Source: Oscillospiraceae bacterium (GTDB taxonomy: Bacteria > Bacillota > Clostridia > Oscillospirales > Oscillospiraceae). From it: a stretch of DNA of 64,000 bases. The notes beneath the pieces were generated by a model that ran no database searches, had not been told where the DNA came from, and saw nothing but the letters and a program-made list of their open reading frames with translations. The stretch is from the NCBI GenBank assembly GCA_017461445.1, contig JAFTXW010000002.1:1-64000 (forward strand), read 5' to 3'. Position 1 is the first letter of the stretch. Every line of letters starts with the position of its first letter. The position numbers and the translations under genes were made by a program. Positions 1 to 57,300 of this stretch are shown here, one piece after another.

Positions 1-888
<888 letters not shown>

Positions 889-12641: not shown

Positions 12642-12654
12642 AGTTCCTCCAAAT

Positions 12655-12720
12655 TGAAAATTGATAATTGAAAATTGAAAATTCTTGCCTTAATTTTCAA
12701 TTTTACATTTTCAATTTTCC
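12655..12720. repeat. TTTTCAATTTTCAA-type dispersed repeat, copy G1
   Basis: Tandem AATTGAAAATTGAAAATT units on one side face AATTTTCAATTTTAC units on the other, giving an imperfect palindrome. Related copies lie at 29865-29902 and 33740-33768. Its right edge supplies the last codons and stop of mrnC. Confidence 0.75.
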
Positions 12721-13112
12721 ATTACATTTTTGAACAGTTCATTCAATCTATCCGTCCTGCCTGCCAGGTACAGGGCACCGAACAGGGCTTCCAGGCCGGT
12801 GGCTTTGGCGTATTCGGCGGGGGTGCAGGATTTGGGGACGGCGTGGACGTGGGAATTTTTGCCCCGGCGGTAGTAGCTCAGCTCCTCCTCGGTGAGCAGG
12901 GGCAGGAGCTTGTCCACGAATTTTGCCTGGGAGGTGGCCTTCACCATCTGGATGGTGTCACTGTGGAGCTTCCCCACATTCTTCCCACCCTGGGCGCACA
13001 GGTAGCCCCGGCAGAGAATTTCAAAGACGCAGTCCCCCATGTGGGCCAGGCCTAAGTTGGAGATGGCGTCGATCTCCTGCTTGCTCAAATTCATTTTAAA
13101 ATAGTTTTCCAT
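12711..13112 (-). CDS. mrnC: Mini-ribonuclease III
   Basis: A 133-residue member of the MrnC family, which in Bacillus trims 23S rRNA precursors. It is a lone RNase III domain without a dsRNA-binding domain. Signature blocks are NLGLAHMGDCVFEI (with the catalytic-type Asp) and the C-terminal ATGLEALFGALYLAG. The start at 13112 has a GGAGGAAAG site and overlaps the upstream Gx transporter gene by 22 bp. The final residues MEN and the stop come from repeat G1. The family is usually next to cysS; that is not so here. Confidence 0.9.
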   Translation of the reverse strand: MENYFKMNLSKQEIDAISNLGLAHMGDCVFEILCRGYLCAQGGKNVGKLHSDTIQMVKATSQAKFVDKLLPLLTEEELSYYRRGKNSHVHAVPKSCTPAEYAKATGLEALFGALYLAGRTDRLNELFKNVMEN

Positions 13113-29738: not shown

Positions 29739-29864
29739 AGAATTTCCTCCAATATGATCAATATGGAAATATTATACTCCGATTTTCTGCGCGAAACAAG
29801 GATAAATAGTGCCCAAAGAGTTTTTTCGCAAAGGGCTGGAAATTGGGGGAATAGACTGGTATAA

Positions 29865-29902
29865 TGAAAAATTGAAAGTGGAAAGTTGAAAATTGAAAAT
29901 TG
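29865..29902. repeat. TTTTCAATTTTCAA-type dispersed repeat, copy G2
   Basis: GAAAAATTGAAAGTGGAAAG, TTGAAAATTGAAAATTG in tandem. It belongs to the same family as 12655-12720 and 33740-33768. It begins at the -10 region (TATAAT, 29860-29865) of the next gene. Confidence 0.65.
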
Positions 29903-33498: not shown

Positions 33499-33739
33499 GT
33501 AGGTTTCCTCCTATATGTTGTGGTATGGTGTTTGCGTTTCCGCTTGCATATCCCATTCAAACAGCATTATATGTCAAATTTGCACAAAATTCAAGGTCCC
33601 ACAGTGGTACCATCTTGGTACCATTTAGCTATTATACGCATATTTTAAGGCACCTTCTTTGCGGAAGGTGCCCTATTTTTGCGTTCTCCCTGCGGAGCAC
33701 ATTGTCTTGGGTAAGGGAAAGCCGTCATTCCCGAAAATA
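33499..33739. other. Intergenic region with terminator-like hairpin
   Basis: No convincing gene. A direct repeat (TGGTACCATCTTGGTACCAT, about 33605-33624) is followed by GGCACCTT/AAGGTGCC (33649-33672) and CTATTTTT, a plus-oriented terminator-like hairpin. Confidence 0.55.
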
Positions 33740-33768
33740 ATTTTCAATTTTCAACTTTCAATTTTCAC
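33740..33768. repeat. TTTTCAATTTTCAA-type dispersed repeat, copy G3
   Basis: TTTTCAATTTTCAACTTTCA plus TTTTCACC. It supplies the last two codons and the stop of the glycosidase gene on the minus strand (GAA AAT TGA), just as copy G1 does for mrnC. Confidence 0.7.
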
Positions 33769-34852
33769 CTTCCCCCGCTCTCACCATCCAGAAATTCGGC
33801 ATCCTTCTCGGCTCGGACTGCATCAGGGAGTAGCTGTTCATCATCTGCACCTGTCCCGGTTCACCGTAGCGGCCGTAGGTGTCCCGGTAGAGCATGACGG
33901 AGGAGGAGCCGCCGTCCATGTTGCAGGCGTTCACCGCCCCAAACTCCACCATGATGTCGATGATGTCCGCGTATTCGCCGCCGAGAGAGCCTGCCTGCCG
34001 CCCGTCGATGCACACAAAAATCACCGCGCCGTCTGCCCGCTGGCCGATGGCTGTCCGGGGGTTCAGGCCGGAGGTGGTGACATAGGCCTCCTGGTTCACT
34101 TCCCCGTTCATGATCAGGACAGGGCCAAAGCAGCAGCCGTCCCGGATGTTCAGCTCCTCCGCCTGGGCCTTGGTGATGTTGTCCTTATGTACCACCAGCA
34201 CGTTGTCCTCGTTGAAGCCCCCGAAGCCGCTGGTTTCCGTGGGCTTTCCCGAAGTCCAGACGCATTCCCCTTCGGAGTACACCAGGCCCATGGGAATGGA
34301 ATCGATGGGGTCGGCAAAGGCACCGCCGTTCACCGCCGCGACGGCTCCTTCATCCTCGATGGCCACATTCAGCCGCTTGCCGGGGATGGACGTGGAAAAG
34401 CCCTTCTGGGTGGAGATGCCCAGATACACCTGGGAAGGGTCCCGGACGATCATTACATGGGCGGTATAGGTTCCGCCCTGAACCTCCTCGAAGCGGATGC
34501 CGTCGGGGTAGTCGGCCCATTCGTCCATGGCGGCAGGGTCGTTTTCCTGGCGGATGATGATGGCATCGGCATCGCTCACCTCCTCCGTCAGTTTCTTTCC
34601 CTCGCTGGCCGCCCGGATCTGCGCCACCCCCTCCTCCCCGATGAACAGGGCGGGCACCCATTTGGTGGCACTGGCCTCAATAAGGGCCATTGCCAGCTGG
34701 TTCCGGGCGGTGGGGGACGGGCCGTTGAACACCAGGTTCAGCACCAGCACCAGGGCCGTCACCGCCAGTACGATCACCGTAAACACCACCAGCGCAGTGC
34801 GGCGAAGGATACGCCCCACAAGGCCGCTGCGGTTCTTTTTCTTCTGTTTCAT
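33758..34852 (-). CDS. Phosphodiester glycosidase (NAGPA-domain) membrane protein
   Basis: A 364-residue protein. The N-terminal basic tail and membrane helix (about 15-42) anchor an extracellular NAGPA domain (about 140-360). Family motifs are AVNGGAFAD, GRQAGSLGGEYADI and the catalytic-region NACNMDGGSSSVMLY. These domains cleave GlcNAc or other sugars from phosphodiesters in cell-wall or exopolysaccharide material. AAGGAAAATTGC precedes the start. An out-of-frame ORF with a stronger site begins 91 bp upstream and overlaps it. The C-terminal residues come from repeat G3. Confidence 0.87.
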   Translation of the reverse strand: MKQKKKNRSGLVGRILRRTALVVFTVIVLAVTALVLVLNLVFNGPSPTARNQLAMALIEASATKWVPALFIGEEGVAQIRAASEGKKLTEEVSDADAIIIRQENDPAAMDEWADYPDGIRFEEVQGGTYTAHVMIVRDPSQVYLGISTQKGFSTSIPGKRLNVAIEDEGAVAAVNGGAFADPIDSIPMGLVYSEGECVWTSGKPTETSGFGGFNEDNVLVVHKDNITKAQAEELNIRDGCCFGPVLIMNGEVNQEAYVTTSGLNPRTAIGQRADGAVIFVCIDGRQAGSLGGEYADIIDIMVEFGAVNACNMDGGSSSVMLYRDTYGRYGEPGQVQMMNSYSLMQSEPRRMPNFWMVRAGEGEN

Positions 34853-35075: not shown

Positions 35076-35104
35076 TTGACATTTTCACTTGAACTTCATA
35101 TAAT
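35076..35104 (+). promoter_or_regulatory. Consensus promoter of type III TA locus
   Basis: TTGACA (35076-35081), exactly 17 bp, TATAAT (35099-35104): all twelve bases match sigma-A consensus. The predicted start, about 35111, is at the first antitoxin repeat. Type III systems need strong antitoxin RNA synthesis, so this fits. Confidence 0.88.
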
Positions 35105-35110
35105 ATTAAT

Positions 35111-35264
35111 GAACCGCTTCACAATGTGCGGCAAAATACATTGTTTATTCAAATGTGTTTCGCAATGTACACCAAGTCACATTGCTTACACAAATACGCT
35201 TCACAATGTGCGGCAAAGAAACATTGTTTAACAACAGCCTTCGGTGATTCCGAGGGCTGTTGTT
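35111..35264 (+). ncRNA. Candidate type III antitoxin RNA with terminator
   Basis: The RNA would begin at the repeats, run through about 2.8 units of a 41-nt tandem repeat (starting at 35115, 35156 and 35197), and end in a strong hairpin (AACAACAGCC at 35230-35239 with GGCTGTTGTT at 35255-35264). In known ToxIN, CptIN and TenpIN loci the same order of promoter, tandem repeat, attenuating terminator and toxin is found; each repeat is cut by the toxin into one antitoxin RNA. The terminator would let a little read-through make toxin mRNA. Confidence 0.8.
35115..35229 (+). repeat. Tandem 41-nt repeats of the antitoxin RNA
   Basis: Unit 1 is at 35115-35155, unit 2 at 35156-35196 and partial unit 3 at 35197-35229. 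Shared words are TTC(A/G)CAATGT, (G/A)C(G/A)(G/C)CAA and ACATTG(T/C)TTA. Units 1 and 3 are nearly identical and unit 2 is more diverged. There are no spacers, so this is not a CRISPR. Confidence 0.85.
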
Positions 35265-35287
35265 ACATAGAGAAAAGAGAGATATTT

Positions 35288-35791
35288 ATGATTGAACGCG
35301 GTTTATATTATGCTACAGAAGAGTTTGGTGAAATGATTCGTAGTTTGGGTGGTGTCTGGAACGACACTAAGCACAGACCGATTGTTTGTCTTATTAAGTC
35401 AAGCGAACATGAAAATCTATATTGGGCTATTCCCATGGGAAAATTGAATCATCGAGATAGTAACCAACTGAATCGTTTGAATTTCTTTTTGAATTTACCT
35501 GATAGTGATTTGCGCTCCTGCTACTACCACGTTGGGCGAACTACTACGCGCTCTATCTTCTTTATTAGCGATGCAATCCCAATCACAGATAAATATATCG
35601 ATTCTGCTCATGTGGGCGGGGATAATAACCACTTTATCATTAAGAATCCAAATCTAATTGCCGAGTTGGAGCGCAAGCTCTTCCGTATCCTGTCCGTGGA
35701 AAATTCTCGTAAGAATTCTTTCAGGCAAAAAATTACCGCCGTCAAGGAACATTTGATTGCTGAACTCGATGCCGAAACGGTTTCTGAATAA
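35288..35791 (+). CDS. cptN: Type III toxin, CptN/ToxN-family endoribonuclease
   Basis: A 167-residue basic protein beginning MIERGLYYATEEFGEMIRSL. Blocks typical of CptN-type toxins are RPIVCLIKS, LYWAIPMGKLNHRD, SCYYHVGRTTTRSIFFISD and HFIIKNPNLIAELERKL. These enzymes cut mRNA and their own repeat RNA, and stay inactive when bound by it; several cause phage abortive infection. The family was recognised from memory of motifs and from the locus layout. The start at 35288 has only a weak AGAGAGA site, which fits low toxin expression; an in-frame extension through the repeats is ruled out. Codons are AT-rich, unlike the neighbours, suggesting transfer. Confidence 0.82.
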   Translation: MIERGLYYATEEFGEMIRSLGGVWNDTKHRPIVCLIKSSEHENLYWAIPMGKLNHRDSNQLNRLNFFLNLPDSDLRSCYYHVGRTTTRSIFFISDAIPITDKYIDSAHVGGDNNHFIIKNPNLIAELERKLFRILSVENSRKNSFRQKITAVKEHLIAELDAETVSE

Positions 35792-35839
35792 TCAGGAAAA
35801 GCAGTTTCTGTAAAAATATAATAATAAACTTGATAAAAA

Positions 35840-35869
35840 GCAGAGAGTCCTGTTTGACGAACTCTCTGC
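35840..35869 (+). terminator. Terminator after toxin gene
   Basis: GCAGAGAGT (35840-35848) pairs with ACTCTCTGC (35861-35869), followed by CTTTTGCTTTTTT. It closes the toxin-antitoxin unit and can also serve the convergent ABC gene. Confidence 0.82.
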
Positions 35870-35900
35870 CTTTTGCTTTTTTACTGCTTTTGTTTGGTTC

Positions 35901-37733
35901 TCAGGAGACGGAATCGAACTGGGATTCATAGAGCTTCCGGTAGAAGCCGTTCTGGGCCATCAGGGTTTCGTGAGTGCCCTGCTCCACGATCCTGCCGCCG
36001 TCCAGCACCAGGATGTGGTCAGCGGAGCGGATGGTGGAGAGCCGGTGGGCAATGACGAAGCAGGTCTTGCCCTTCATCAGCTCCCGCATGGCGGCCTGGA
36101 TGTGTTCCTCGGTGCGGGTGTCCACGTTGGAGGTGGCCTCGTCCAGGATCAGCATGTGGGCATCCAGCAGCATGGCCCGGGCGATGGTCAGCATCTGCTT
36201 CTGGCCCTTGGAAATGGAGGTGCCGTTGTCGGAGAGCACCGTGTCATAGCCCTGGGGCAGGCGGGAGATGTGGGAGTGGATGTGGGCGGCTTTCGCGGCC
36301 CGGATGACCTCCTCCCGGGTGGCTCCCGGCTTGCCGTAGGCGATGTTTTCGTAAATGGTGCCGTGGAACAGCCAGGTATCCTGCAGCACCATGGTGTAGG
36401 CCTTCCGCAGGGAATCCCGGGTCAGGGTACGGATGTCCTTGCCGTCCACATAGATGGTGCCCCCGTCTACGTCGTAAAAACGCATCAAAAGGTTAATAAT
36501 GGTGGTCTTGCCTGCGCCGGTGGGGCCGACAATGGCCGTCAGGCTGCCCGGCTCCGCGTGGAGGTTCAGATCCCGGATGATGGGCTTTTCCGGCTCATAG
36601 GAGAAATCCACATGTTCCAGCCGCACGTCGCCCTTCACATCGGTCAGAACTTCAGCATTTTCCGCGTCCGCAGGCTCCGGCTCCGCGTCGATGAGGGTGA
36701 AGACCCGCTCCGCCGCAGCGAAGGCACTTTGCAGCTCCGCGATGATATTGGCGATCTCATTGATGGGGCCGGAGAATTTCCGGGAATACTGGACAAAGCT
36801 GCTGAGATCGCCCAGCCGCACCTGGCCCTTCAGGAACAGCAGGGAACCAAAGACGCAGATCAGGGCCAGGGAAACATTGTTGATGAAATTCACCGAGGGG
36901 CCGGTAACGGTGCCGTTGGCCTCCGCCACGGTGTAGGCATCCACGGCGGCCTGGTTCTTTTTGTCGAATTCCTCCAGCACCACATCCTCCCGGCCATAGG
37001 CCCGGATGGATTTCTGTCCGGAGAGCATCTCCTCCACAAAGCCGTTCAGTTCGCCCAGCCGTGCGCTGCGGCGGCGGAACAAGGGCCGCACCCGGGCAGT
37101 GAGCCAGCGGGTGAAGAAAAAGGTGCCCGGAATGGTCACCACGAACACCAGCACCAGCTTCGGGGCAATGGTCAGCATCATGATAAAGGAAACGGTGATG
37201 GTGACGGTGCTCTGCAATACTTGCAGCATATCCGAGGACAAGGACTGGTTCACCGTGTCCACATCGTAGGTGATGGTGCTGATGATATCGCCGGTCTGGT
37301 AACGGTCAAAGTAGCTGACCGGCAGCCGGGTGAGGTTTTCAAACACATCGTGGCGCATCTGCTTGGAGATGGATCGGGACAGGCGGATCATGACCACGTT
37401 CAGAAGATAGGTCAGCGCGGCGGAGCAGATGTAAAAAACGGTCATCAGGGCGGCGCAGCGGAAGACGGTATCGAAATCCACCCGTCCTGCGCCCAGCTCG
37501 ATCGCGTTGATGGCTTCGCCGGAGAGCTTGGGGCCATAGAGGGCCAGCAGGCTGGAGGACACACTTAGCACCAACGCCAACACCAGCAGCAGCCGGTTTC
37601 GGCCGATGTACCGCCACAGCCGCAGCAGCAGTGCGCCCATATTCAGCTTTTTGCCCTCAAAACGCCGCTTGTCGCCGCTGGTTTCTGCCCGGGTCATGCG
37701 TCCGCCGCCAATCAGATTGGGATTTCCTGCCAT
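35901..37733 (-). CDS. ABC exporter half-transporter (catalytic-site subunit)
   Basis: A 610-residue fused permease-ATPase. Six membrane helices lie in about residues 30-340. The ATPase has Walker A GPTGAGKTT, signature ISKGQKQ (degenerate) and Walker B LILDEATSNVD with the catalytic Glu. It is second in a two-gene operon; its ATG shares a base with the upstream stop (TAATG). It should pair with the 571-residue subunit as a heterodimeric type IV exporter of the BmrCD/TM287-288 kind. The substrate is unknown. Confidence 0.9.
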   Translation of the reverse strand: MAGNPNLIGGGRMTRAETSGDKRRFEGKKLNMGALLLRLWRYIGRNRLLLVLALVLSVSSSLLALYGPKLSGEAINAIELGAGRVDFDTVFRCAALMTVFYICSAALTYLLNVVMIRLSRSISKQMRHDVFENLTRLPVSYFDRYQTGDIISTITYDVDTVNQSLSSDMLQVLQSTVTITVSFIMMLTIAPKLVLVFVVTIPGTFFFTRWLTARVRPLFRRRSARLGELNGFVEEMLSGQKSIRAYGREDVVLEEFDKKNQAAVDAYTVAEANGTVTGPSVNFINNVSLALICVFGSLLFLKGQVRLGDLSSFVQYSRKFSGPINEIANIIAELQSAFAAAERVFTLIDAEPEPADAENAEVLTDVKGDVRLEHVDFSYEPEKPIIRDLNLHAEPGSLTAIVGPTGAGKTTIINLLMRFYDVDGGTIYVDGKDIRTLTRDSLRKAYTMVLQDTWLFHGTIYENIAYGKPGATREEVIRAAKAAHIHSHISRLPQGYDTVLSDNGTSISKGQKQMLTIARAMLLDAHMLILDEATSNVDTRTEEHIQAAMRELMKGKTCFVIAHRLSTIRSADHILVLDGGRIVEQGTHETLMAQNGFYRKLYESQFDSVS

Positions 37734-57250: not shown

Positions 57251-57300
57251 TAATTAAATTGAGTTCAATTTAATTATATGCAAATCATCCAAATTGTCAA
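57251..57300 (-). promoter_or_regulatory. OhrR-regulated promoter and operator of gpx operon
   Basis: A perfect palindrome of TAATTAAATTGA (57251-57262), GT and its complement (57265-57276) covers the -10 region. On minus, TTGACA (57300-57295), 16 bp and TATAAT (57278-57273) form a promoter overlapped by the palindrome. AATT-rich palindromes of this kind are typical OhrR/MarR sites. Confidence 0.78.

What the first reader, a model, noticed from the sequence alone, without database searches (positions are those of the whole stretch)
35076..35869. Compact type III toxin-antitoxin locus (CptIN/ToxIN-like)
The sequence shows, in order, a 12/12 consensus promoter, about 2.8 tandem 41-nt repeats beginning at the predicted transcript start, a strong hairpin, a 167-codon AT-rich gene with a weak ribosome site, and a terminator. 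That is the layout of type III systems, where repeat RNA neutralises an endoribonuclease. The protein motifs fit the CptN branch. The repeat sequence and the diverged middle unit may define a new RNA variant, and the system may act in phage defence.
Basis: partly seen in the sequence, partly recalled or inferred. Interest (0 to 1): 0.85.

Follow-up and report, generated by a model that had tools for sequence, protein, structure and literature searches.

The report
Type III toxin–antitoxin, new RNA branch
A small bacterial gene pair looks set to make an RNA-cutting toxin and a repeated RNA that should hold it in check; the repeat belongs to an RNA family that Rfam files as a regulatory element, and look-alike single copies without a detected toxin turn up in phage sequences.

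Summary
Window 35076-35885 holds a perfect sigma-70 promoter, three 41-nt repeat units, a hairpin, a 167-aa CptN-like gene and a terminator. The protein matches the NCBIfam CptIN model (2e-12, below its cut-off) and solved CptN toxin 4RMO (1e-5).

Three results go further. (1) The array is Rfam RF02920 'Fusobacteriales-1', filed as cis-regulatory. Of 12 genomes positive in RNA searches, 10 have a CptN-like gene or remnant downstream; 18 of 24 loci found by the protein carry the RNA. (2) Each unit is an H-type pseudoknot with a 3-bp helix that Rfam's structure line lacks. It pairs fully in 45 of 46 distinct units (shuffled mean 19) and 15 of 16 later ones. The 'diverged' middle unit is a compensated version of the same fold. 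(3) Single units with intact helices and no detected toxin lie in viral contigs, some near tRNA genes. Three lie 14 to 322 nt from a second, TenpI-like type III antitoxin unit.

[quoted passage not shown] Its RNA differs in stem plan from solved CptI, and its toxin has glycine where CptN has a catalytic serine. Phage decoy function is inferred.

The parts
35076..35104 (+). sigma-70 promoter, TTGACA-17-TATAAT
   Evidence: 12 of 12 consensus; the only other 12/12 site in the window is at 57300 (-)
35110..35227 (+). antitoxin repeat array, Rfam RF02920 Fusobacteriales-1
   Evidence: 87 bits, E 4.2e-12; again in the whole-window scan
35114..35144 (+). unit 1 pseudoknot core: S1 CCGC/GCGG, L1 UUC, S2 ACAAUGU/ACAUUGU
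   Evidence: coordinates; pairing rule
35155..35185 (+). unit 2 (the 'diverged' unit): S1 GUGU/ACAC, S2 GCAAUGU/ACAUUGC, both helices kept by compensated changes
   Evidence: identical 31-nt core in sister genome G811 (L099)
35197..35227 (+). unit 3 pseudoknot core: S1 CGC/GCG, S2 ACAAUGU/ACAUUGU
35229..35265 (+). hairpin between array and toxin (attenuator; poor U-tract here)
   Evidence: 16-nt arms 94% complementary, -27.2 kcal/mol
35288..35791 (+). CptN-like toxin gene, 167 aa
   Evidence: NCBIfam CptIN 2e-12, 47.2 bits against cut-off 90; PDB 4RMO 1e-5
35836..35885 (+). terminator hairpin with U-run
   Evidence: -14.7 kcal/mol; not listed by the scan, whose loops are limited to 3-8 nt

Best explanation
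A type III toxin-antitoxin module. One strong promoter makes an RNA of three pseudoknot units. The hairpin lets only part of transcription run on into the toxin gene. The toxin is an endoribonuclease that cuts the array in the single-stranded spacers and is then held inactive in a complex with the ~41-nt units. When transcription stops or the RNA is lost, the free toxin cleaves cellular or phage RNA. SHOWN here: the anatomy, homology of the toxin to CptN, linkage of RNA and toxin across genomes, and the pseudoknot by covariation. INFERRED from solved CptIN (PMC4627078): toxicity, processing, neutralisation. The toxin belongs to a sister clade of CptN (100/100 support) whose RNA has S1 of 3-4 bp, L1 of 3 nt and S2 of 7 bp with abutting stems, where E. 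rectale-like CptI has S1 of 5-6 bp, L1 of 1 nt, S2 of about 5 bp and a gap.
For: Toxin homology. RF02920 over gathering lies upstream of the CptN-like gene in 18 of 24 protein-found loci (a few loci are near-copies). RNA searches in 391, 348 and 121 genomes gave 12 positive genomes, 10 with a CptN-like gene or remnant downstream on the same strand. Four of the 12 were already known from the window or the protein side (G000, G391, G655, G661); of the other eight, six have one. S1 pairs 3 of 3 in 45 of 46 distinct units, shuffles mean 19.2, max 30 in 10,000; later units 15 of 16. Four S1 helices use G-U, which fits the + strand only. Units from 19 loci with an intact toxin ORF: 0 of 35 have a broken helix; from 8 loci with a broken toxin ORF: 3 of 14. 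Toxins with units of this class form one clade, 19 rows, 100/100.
Against: No expression data. The toxin is below the CptIN model's curated cut-off (47.2 against 90 bits). Where 4RMO has catalytic Ser51 the clade has an invariant glycine (10 of 10 rows), so ribonuclease activity is not certain. The window protein has Lys148 where its nine relatives have His. The hairpin lacks a clean U-tract. Two orphan arrays without any detected toxin exist in sister genomes, which a strict pair would not predict. The fold of the toxin could not be modelled.
Confidence: 0.92

Rival explanations
1. The repeats are a cis-regulatory leader (attenuator or riboswitch) of an unrelated gene, as Rfam's label 'Cis-reg' says.
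For: Rfam type of RF02920 is Cis-reg; the array does lie upstream of a gene behind a hairpin.
Against: The gene behind it is a toxin homologue or its remnant in 10 of 12 RNA-positive genomes (and follow-ups 31, 47, 51, 56, 66). The unit recurs in tandem with period 41 and as a pseudoknot. Two genomes keep the array with no match of this toxin family, so it can persist apart from the gene.
Confidence: 0.04
2. The window's locus is a decayed, inactive copy.
For: Decayed relatives exist: L012 (start codon reads ACG), L015, L016, L020/L045, L023, L042, L046. The hairpin lacks a good U-tract. The window protein departs from its nine relatives at the otherwise conserved H148 (Lys).
Against: The window's ORF is full length, all three units keep S1 and S2, and the promoter is perfect.
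Confidence: 0.06
3. About the phage units: solitary units in viral contigs are relics of lost toxin-antitoxin loci, or retained anti-addiction RNAs, and not decoys against host toxins.
For: Phage ES-S-0107-01 keeps units 1-2 of a CptIN locus whose toxin was swapped for ToxIN. L202 has half of a preceding unit. L110, L191 and L228 keep an array-like 5' spacer, perhaps a trace of a lost unit. L126 keeps a terminator-like hairpin.
Against: None of the 98 isolated hits of scan 1 had a second recognisable unit within 150 nt. Three have S1 pairs not seen in any array unit (GGC/GCC, AGU/ACU, GGU/ACC) yet fully paired. Three lie 14, 34 and 322 nt from a solitary unit of a second, TenpI-like antitoxin. 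Five of 11 families have a tRNA gene 54 to 1437 nt away.
Confidence: 0.35

Closest known systems
CptIN of Eubacterium rectale (PDB 4RMO; PMC4627078, Results and Discussion sections read)
   Same: Gene order, array then hairpin then toxin; toxin homologous over residues 1-137; units are H-type pseudoknots; small number of repeats
   Different: Unit 41 nt, not 45; S1 3-4 bp, L1 3 nt, S2 7 bp, no gap between stems, against S1 5-6, L1 1, S2 about 5 and a gap in E. rectale-like loci. Other CptN-side arrays vary (S1 3-6, S2 4-7 bp), so this plan lies at one end of a range. Ser51 replaced by Gly and a short insertion before the conserved Arg; 47 bits on a model whose cut-off is 90
Rfam RF02920 Fusobacteriales-1 RNA
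   Same: The array is a full-length match, 1-113 of 113, 87 bits
   Different: Rfam files it as cis-regulatory and its structure line draws only three hairpins (S2); here it is read as the antitoxin array and each unit has the extra helix S1
pseudo-ToxI of phage PhiTE (PMC3475682, passages read)
   Same: A phage carries sequence like a type III antitoxin unit without the toxin; expanded copies let PhiTE escape ToxIN
   Different: PhiTE's wild-type 1.5 repeats do not make a full unit. The units here are complete in S1 and S2, belong to the CptI branch, and three stand near TenpI-like units
abiF RNA RF03085 / AbiF (PMC12373285, passages read)
   Same: RNA motif that neutralises a toxin protein; one copy sits in the viral contig L254 near a TenpI-like unit
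   Different: Different RNA and toxin families; score 38.5 against gathering 37, so marginal

Membership tests
type III toxin-antitoxin system (as a class; features as given in PMC5086642, sections 2 and 7 of that paper read) | toxin gene preceded by a tandem array of short RNA repeats | tested here: met
   RNA-toxin linkage
type III toxin-antitoxin system (as a class) | hairpin terminator between array and toxin | tested here: met
   hairpin 35229-35265, -27.2 kcal/mol, though its U-tract is poor in the window
type III toxin-antitoxin system (as a class) | antitoxin unit folds as an H-type pseudoknot | tested here: met
   covariation of S1 and S2; no 3D model
type III toxin-antitoxin system (as a class) | toxin is an endoribonuclease neutralised by the processed RNA | not testable with these tools
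   needs kill/rescue and small-RNA sequencing
CptIN family | toxin homologous to CptN | tested here: met
   NCBIfam CptIN 2e-12, 4RMO 1e-5, class-only profile 5.7e-8
CptIN family | score over the curated NCBIfam cut-off (90 bits) | tested here: not met
   47.2 bits; the seven relatives with units of this class that were scanned scored 50-65 bits, none over the cut-off
CptIN family | catalytic Ser-[Ser/Thr]-Arg triad named in PMC4627078 | tested here: not met
   Gly51 where Ser51 aligns, invariant in 10 of 10 rows; the Arg may be kept as R56. Sequence alignment only
CptIN family | stem plan of the solved 45-nt CptI unit | tested here: not met
   41 nt with S1 3-4, L1 3 and S2 7 bp against S1 5-6, L1 1 and S2 5 in E. 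rectale-like loci; other CptN-side loci vary
RF02920 Fusobacteriales-1 RNA | covariance-model score at or over gathering | tested here: met
   87 against 52.1 bits

The most novel reading that the evidence does not exclude
Phages carry 'RNA antitoxin islands': single, complete antitoxin pseudoknots of several type III families (this CptI branch, TenpI-like, perhaps ToxI-like and abiF), some set near tRNA genes and without their toxins, which soak up the host's RNA-guarded toxins during infection. The window's locus would then be one of the defences that these islands answer.
Probability: 0.5. Interest if true: 0.88.

Novelty: new variant of a known kind. Interest (0 to 1): 0.74.

Why it matters
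It gives a likely function to an Rfam family filed as a cis-regulator. It adds a branch of type III systems that Pfam did not detect (window protein; the seven relatives of this class scanned), that PADLOC did not detect (window protein only), and that stays under NCBIfam's CptIN cut-off. It supplies a further antitoxin stem plan for asking how RNA and toxin co-evolve. If the phage units are decoys, the RNA mimicry seen in evolved PhiTE would be a standing, many-family counter-defence, testable unit by unit.

Tried and rejected
Chance repeat: rejected (RF02920 E 4.2e-12; linkage; covariation). Strict CptIN membership: not filed, because the curated cut-off, the serine and the solved stem plan were tested and not met. 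Middle unit as a new RNA variant: rejected, compensated changes. Empty-site comparison in the genus: 31 of 31 genomes match parts of the region, but in the four compared (L095-L098) the homology starts only at 35896-35938 and the left flank was not found beside it, so no clean empty site. Plasmid carriage of the array: no DNA match in 72,556 plasmid records. Named phages: CptN-like protein in 1 of 50,697 records, array DNA in 2. TenpI-like unit as a bacterial array: 0 of 160 genomes of the family of G391. TenpN-like protein of L251 in named phages: none. ToxI-like elements near solitary units: 4 of 11 islands against shuffled mean 0.65 (0 of 400 shuffles as high), but also 4 of 24 control sites (Fisher 0.19), so only suggestive. 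The [AT]CAA spacer separates hits in scan 1 (7 of 14 outside long frames, 0 of 26 inside) but not in scan 2, where 5 of 24 hits inside long frames have it. Class C CptN L054 has an intact ORF with no array next to it, against a simple rule that an intact toxin needs an adjacent array; it is outside the RF02920 class. Rfam scan of the L240 island found no ToxI family and RF02920 only below gathering. Fusobacteriales themselves could not be searched. The open-frame cut of 120 codons used was chosen after the hit list had been seen; scan 2 was analysed with the same cut afterwards.

Full report
OBSERVATION. A 12/12 promoter lies at 35076-35104. Three repeat units follow at spacing 41, 41, with cores at 35114-35144, 35155-35185 and 35197-35227. 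A hairpin of -27.2 kcal/mol lies at 35229-35265, a 167-aa ORF at 35288-35791, and a terminator at 35836-35885. The islet has 37.7% G+C against 55.4% for the window; 0 of 632 stretches of its length, sampled every 100 bases, are as low. The hairpin is followed by ACAUAGAG and not by a U-run, so its termination strength is uncertain.

THE PROTEIN. For the window protein, Pfam and PADLOC gave nothing up to E = 1. NCBIfam gave CptIN at 2e-12, 47.2 bits against a curated cut-off of 90. The PDB gave CptN 4RMO at 1e-5. A profile made only of the window protein and relatives with this RNA class reached 4RMO at 5.7e-8. A wider profile, which includes two canonical CptN rows and so is partly circular, reached 2.4e-42. 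Of ten relatives scanned all hit CptIN first and one, the canonical L035, passes its cut-off; of the nine below it, seven carry units of this class and two (L030, L019) carry other repeats. PHROGs family 33519, of unknown function, matched all six proteins scanned.

THE RNA IS RF02920. cmscan put 35110-35227 in Rfam RF02920, 'Fusobacteriales-1', type Cis-reg, 87 bits (again). This was tested in both directions. Protein first: of 24 loci found with the toxin (L001-L005, L007-L025), 18 have RF02920 over gathering. The six without are two collapsed arrays (L015, L023) and four loci with other repeats (L019, L021, L022, L025). RNA first: 391 genomes of the class gave 2 hits, 348 genomes of the family of G391 gave 7, and 121 genomes of the window's genus gave 4, the window among them. 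That makes 12 different genomes; G000 and G391 were search centres known beforehand, and G655 and G661 hold loci already found by protein (L007, L020). Ten of the 12 have a CptN-like gene downstream on the same strand: seven full length (G000, G225, G391, G430, G655, G699, G811), one cut to its first ~40 residues (G546), one without its N-terminus (G661), and one split from the array by a 528-aa transposase and frameshifted (G742). Two sister genomes, G756 and G798, keep a two-unit array and no CptN match by a profile that does ring in G811 and G742; G756 is only 78% complete. The large searches used stricter filters that lose weak matches.

A PSEUDOKNOT THAT THE RFAM MODEL LACKS. Rfam's structure line shows one hairpin per unit, here called S2 (7 bp). 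I asked whether the three bases that stand three bases before S2 (S1) pair with the three bases right after the 5' arm of S2. Units were picked by S2 alone. In 28 loci there were 74 units, 46 distinct; the triplets pair 3 of 3 in 45. Dealing the 3' triplets among units gives mean 19.2 and at most 30 in 10,000 shuffles; sliding the partner gives 0 to 26. An earlier, filtered count dropped units by their loop and is superseded. Pair types include CGC/GCG, CGU/ACG, CCU/AGG, UGC/GCA, UGU/ACA, CAU/AUG and CCC/GGG. Six later loci gave 15 of 16, with the S2 pattern slightly widened (some of these had been seen before the count). On a hand-picked alignment of 20 units, all three S1 pairs change on both sides, 28 cells with such changes over both helices against 7.9 in shuffles. 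The two misses are L012 unit 2, whose toxin reads ACG at the start codon, and L101 unit 1, in an orphan array. Units of 19 loci with an intact toxin ORF have 0 broken helices in 35 distinct units; those of 8 loci with a broken ORF (L012 counted among them) have 3 in 14 (the lists contain a few duplicate loci). Related sequences are not independent, so shuffle figures are not probabilities.

WHAT THE MIDDLE UNIT IS. In the window unit 2 has S1 GUGU/ACAC and S2 GCAAUGU/ACAUUGC: both helices intact by paired changes. The same 31-nt core recurs in G811 (L099). It is the same fold, not a different RNA.

CLADE AND DIFFERENCES FROM CptIN. In a tree of 45 toxins the 19 with units of this class form one group, 100/100, and a 1.37-long branch (100/99) separates them, with six further sequences, from the canonical CptN side (the tool warns of long branches). 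E. rectale-like arrays here have S1 of 5-6 bp, L1 of 1, S2 of about 5 bp and a gap, in line with 4RMO's 45-nt unit (PMC4627078, Results and Discussion). In the window's clade S1 is 3-4 bp, L1 3 nt, S2 7 bp and the stems abut. Other CptN-side arrays, a greedy scan, span S1 of 3-6 and S2 of 4-7 bp, so the window's plan lies at one end of a range. Catalytic Ser51 of 4RMO aligns with a glycine that is invariant in 10 of 10 rows; His55 and Arg56 are invariant in those rows. The window protein itself has Lys148 where its nine relatives have His.

MECHANISM. By analogy with 4RMO, the toxin cuts the array after an adenine in the spacer and stays bound to the product. Toxicity, processing and neutralisation are inferred. 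CptIN of E. rectale stabilised plasmids but did not stop over 200 coliphages in E. coli (PMC4627078), so phage defence by this branch is open.

PHAGE UNITS. A pattern scan of viral contigs for one form of S2 with its UUC loop gave 106 stretches, 104 of them held as L102-L205. Six held loci are full CptIN loci already known. The 98 other hits cluster into 40 families. S1 pairs fully in 11 of 14 that lie outside stop-to-stop frames of 120 codons and in 3 of 26 inside such frames (Fisher 4e-5; the cut was set after the hits had been seen, and two families lie close to it). A second scan with another S2 form gave 28 families, 2 of 4 against 0 of 24 (p 0.016); together 13 of 18 against 3 of 50. From these I take 11 solitary families: L154, L110/L102 (six contigs), L143, L159, L145, L191, L202, L126, L163, L240 and L228. 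I leave out L104 (an AAA/TTT case) and L178, both paired and outside long frames, because they lack other array features. Seven of the 11 also have the array's [AT]CAA spacer on the 3' side, a motif that also occurs in 5 of 24 long-frame hits of scan 2. No CptN profile match occurs in the 14 records tested, which do not include those of L240 and L228; they may be fragments. Of ten large ORFs scanned, one per locus, PHROGs named a terminase (L163), portals (L126, L202), PhoH (L159), an exonuclease (L110) and a transposase (L145); L228 and L240 matched phage families of unknown function, L143 only weakly a tail fibre, L154 nothing; L191 was not scanned. tRNA genes lie 54 to 1437 nt away in five of the 11 families. 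Between the diverged phages L110 and L191 a 62-nt stretch over the unit is 93.5% identical while the bases next to it found no BLAST alignment; other conserved stretches lie further off.

A SECOND ANTITOXIN BESIDE THEM. L163, L159 and L240 share another element 14, 322 and 34 nt behind the CptI-like unit. A pattern written from these three occurs in 9 viral contigs, themselves included. In one of the others, L251, it forms a two-unit array with, by eye, a promoter-like sequence, a hairpin and a downstream gene that matches TenpIN (2.4e-7, below cut-off). Its S1 (4 bp) does not vary in the 8 units checked; its S2 (6 bp) pairs fully in all 8 with compensated changes. So it is very likely a type III antitoxin itself. 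A TenpIN search rings in L251's contig and in none of the other eight. L254, one of the nine, also has an abiF RNA, marginally over gathering, with tRNAs. ToxI-like elements are only suggestive. L202 has a unit like the canonical CptI of L025 behind the solitary unit; a pattern written from these two found no other viral contig.

A NATURAL SWAP. Phages pCD1602_4 and ES-S-0107-01 share 184 nt at 97.8% with promoter and units 1-2. In the second, the rest of the cassette is replaced by a ToxIN cassette (three ToxI-type pseudoknots by my scan; ToxN PF13958, 2.5e-35; no NCBIfam match), and homology resumes behind it. The two remaining CptI units keep their helices (sequence). A kept antitoxin after loss of its toxin fits either a decoy or an anti-addiction RNA.

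PRIOR ART. 'Fusobacteriales-1' and 'RF02920' occur in 0 held papers; the papers I recall as the sources of RF02920 and of the CptIN family are not held, so prior recognition cannot be excluded. Searches on phage mimicry of RNA antitoxins led to PhiTE's pseudo-ToxI (PMC3475682, passages) and, from the listings only, TifA (PMC10853763) and a DarTG antitoxin mimic (PMC11481870); one search matched 888 papers of which 20 were listed. Candidate RNAs upstream of ToxN have been proposed as ToxI in microbiomes (PMC8040213, passages).

Noticed in passing
L110, L163, L159, L154, L240, L228, L143, L145, L191, L202, L126 (viral contigs): Solitary CptI-like pseudoknot units without a detected toxin (toxin search not run for the records of L240 and L228), five of the 11 with a tRNA gene on the fetched locus
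   Followed up: partly
L251:1788-2252 (-) and the array upstream of it: A two-unit pseudoknot array before a TenpN-like gene in a 160-kb viral contig; the same unit occurs without a TenpIN match in eight other viral contigs
   Followed up: partly
L257 (CP067347.1 93500-98500) against L024: ToxIN cassette has replaced CptN and the third unit while two CptI units were kept
   Followed up: partly
L100 and L101 (G756, G798): Orphan two-unit RF02920 arrays with promoter-like and hairpin sequences by eye and no CptN match in the genome, with similar flanks in two species of the window's genus
   Followed up: partly
L159:2422-2508 (-): RF02924 skipping-rope RNA lies between the CptI-like and TenpI-like units of a viral contig; its role might be of the same kind
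   Followed up: no
L254:977-1013 (+): abiF RNA (RF03085, 38.5 bits) on the same 3.7-kb stretch as a TenpI-like unit and tRNAs; AbiF itself was not searched for
   Followed up: no
L099 (G811): A 22-nt direct repeat (CAGCCGCCGACCTGATGGAGGC) flanks the CptIN islet, as if the islet had duplicated part of a terminator on insertion
   Followed up: no
window 12651-12730, 29863-29902, 33739-33771: Short A+T-rich tandem repeats of related 7-nt and 14-nt units in several places
   Followed up: no
window 1-887 (-): 16S rRNA fragment that runs off the window (RF00177)
   Followed up: no
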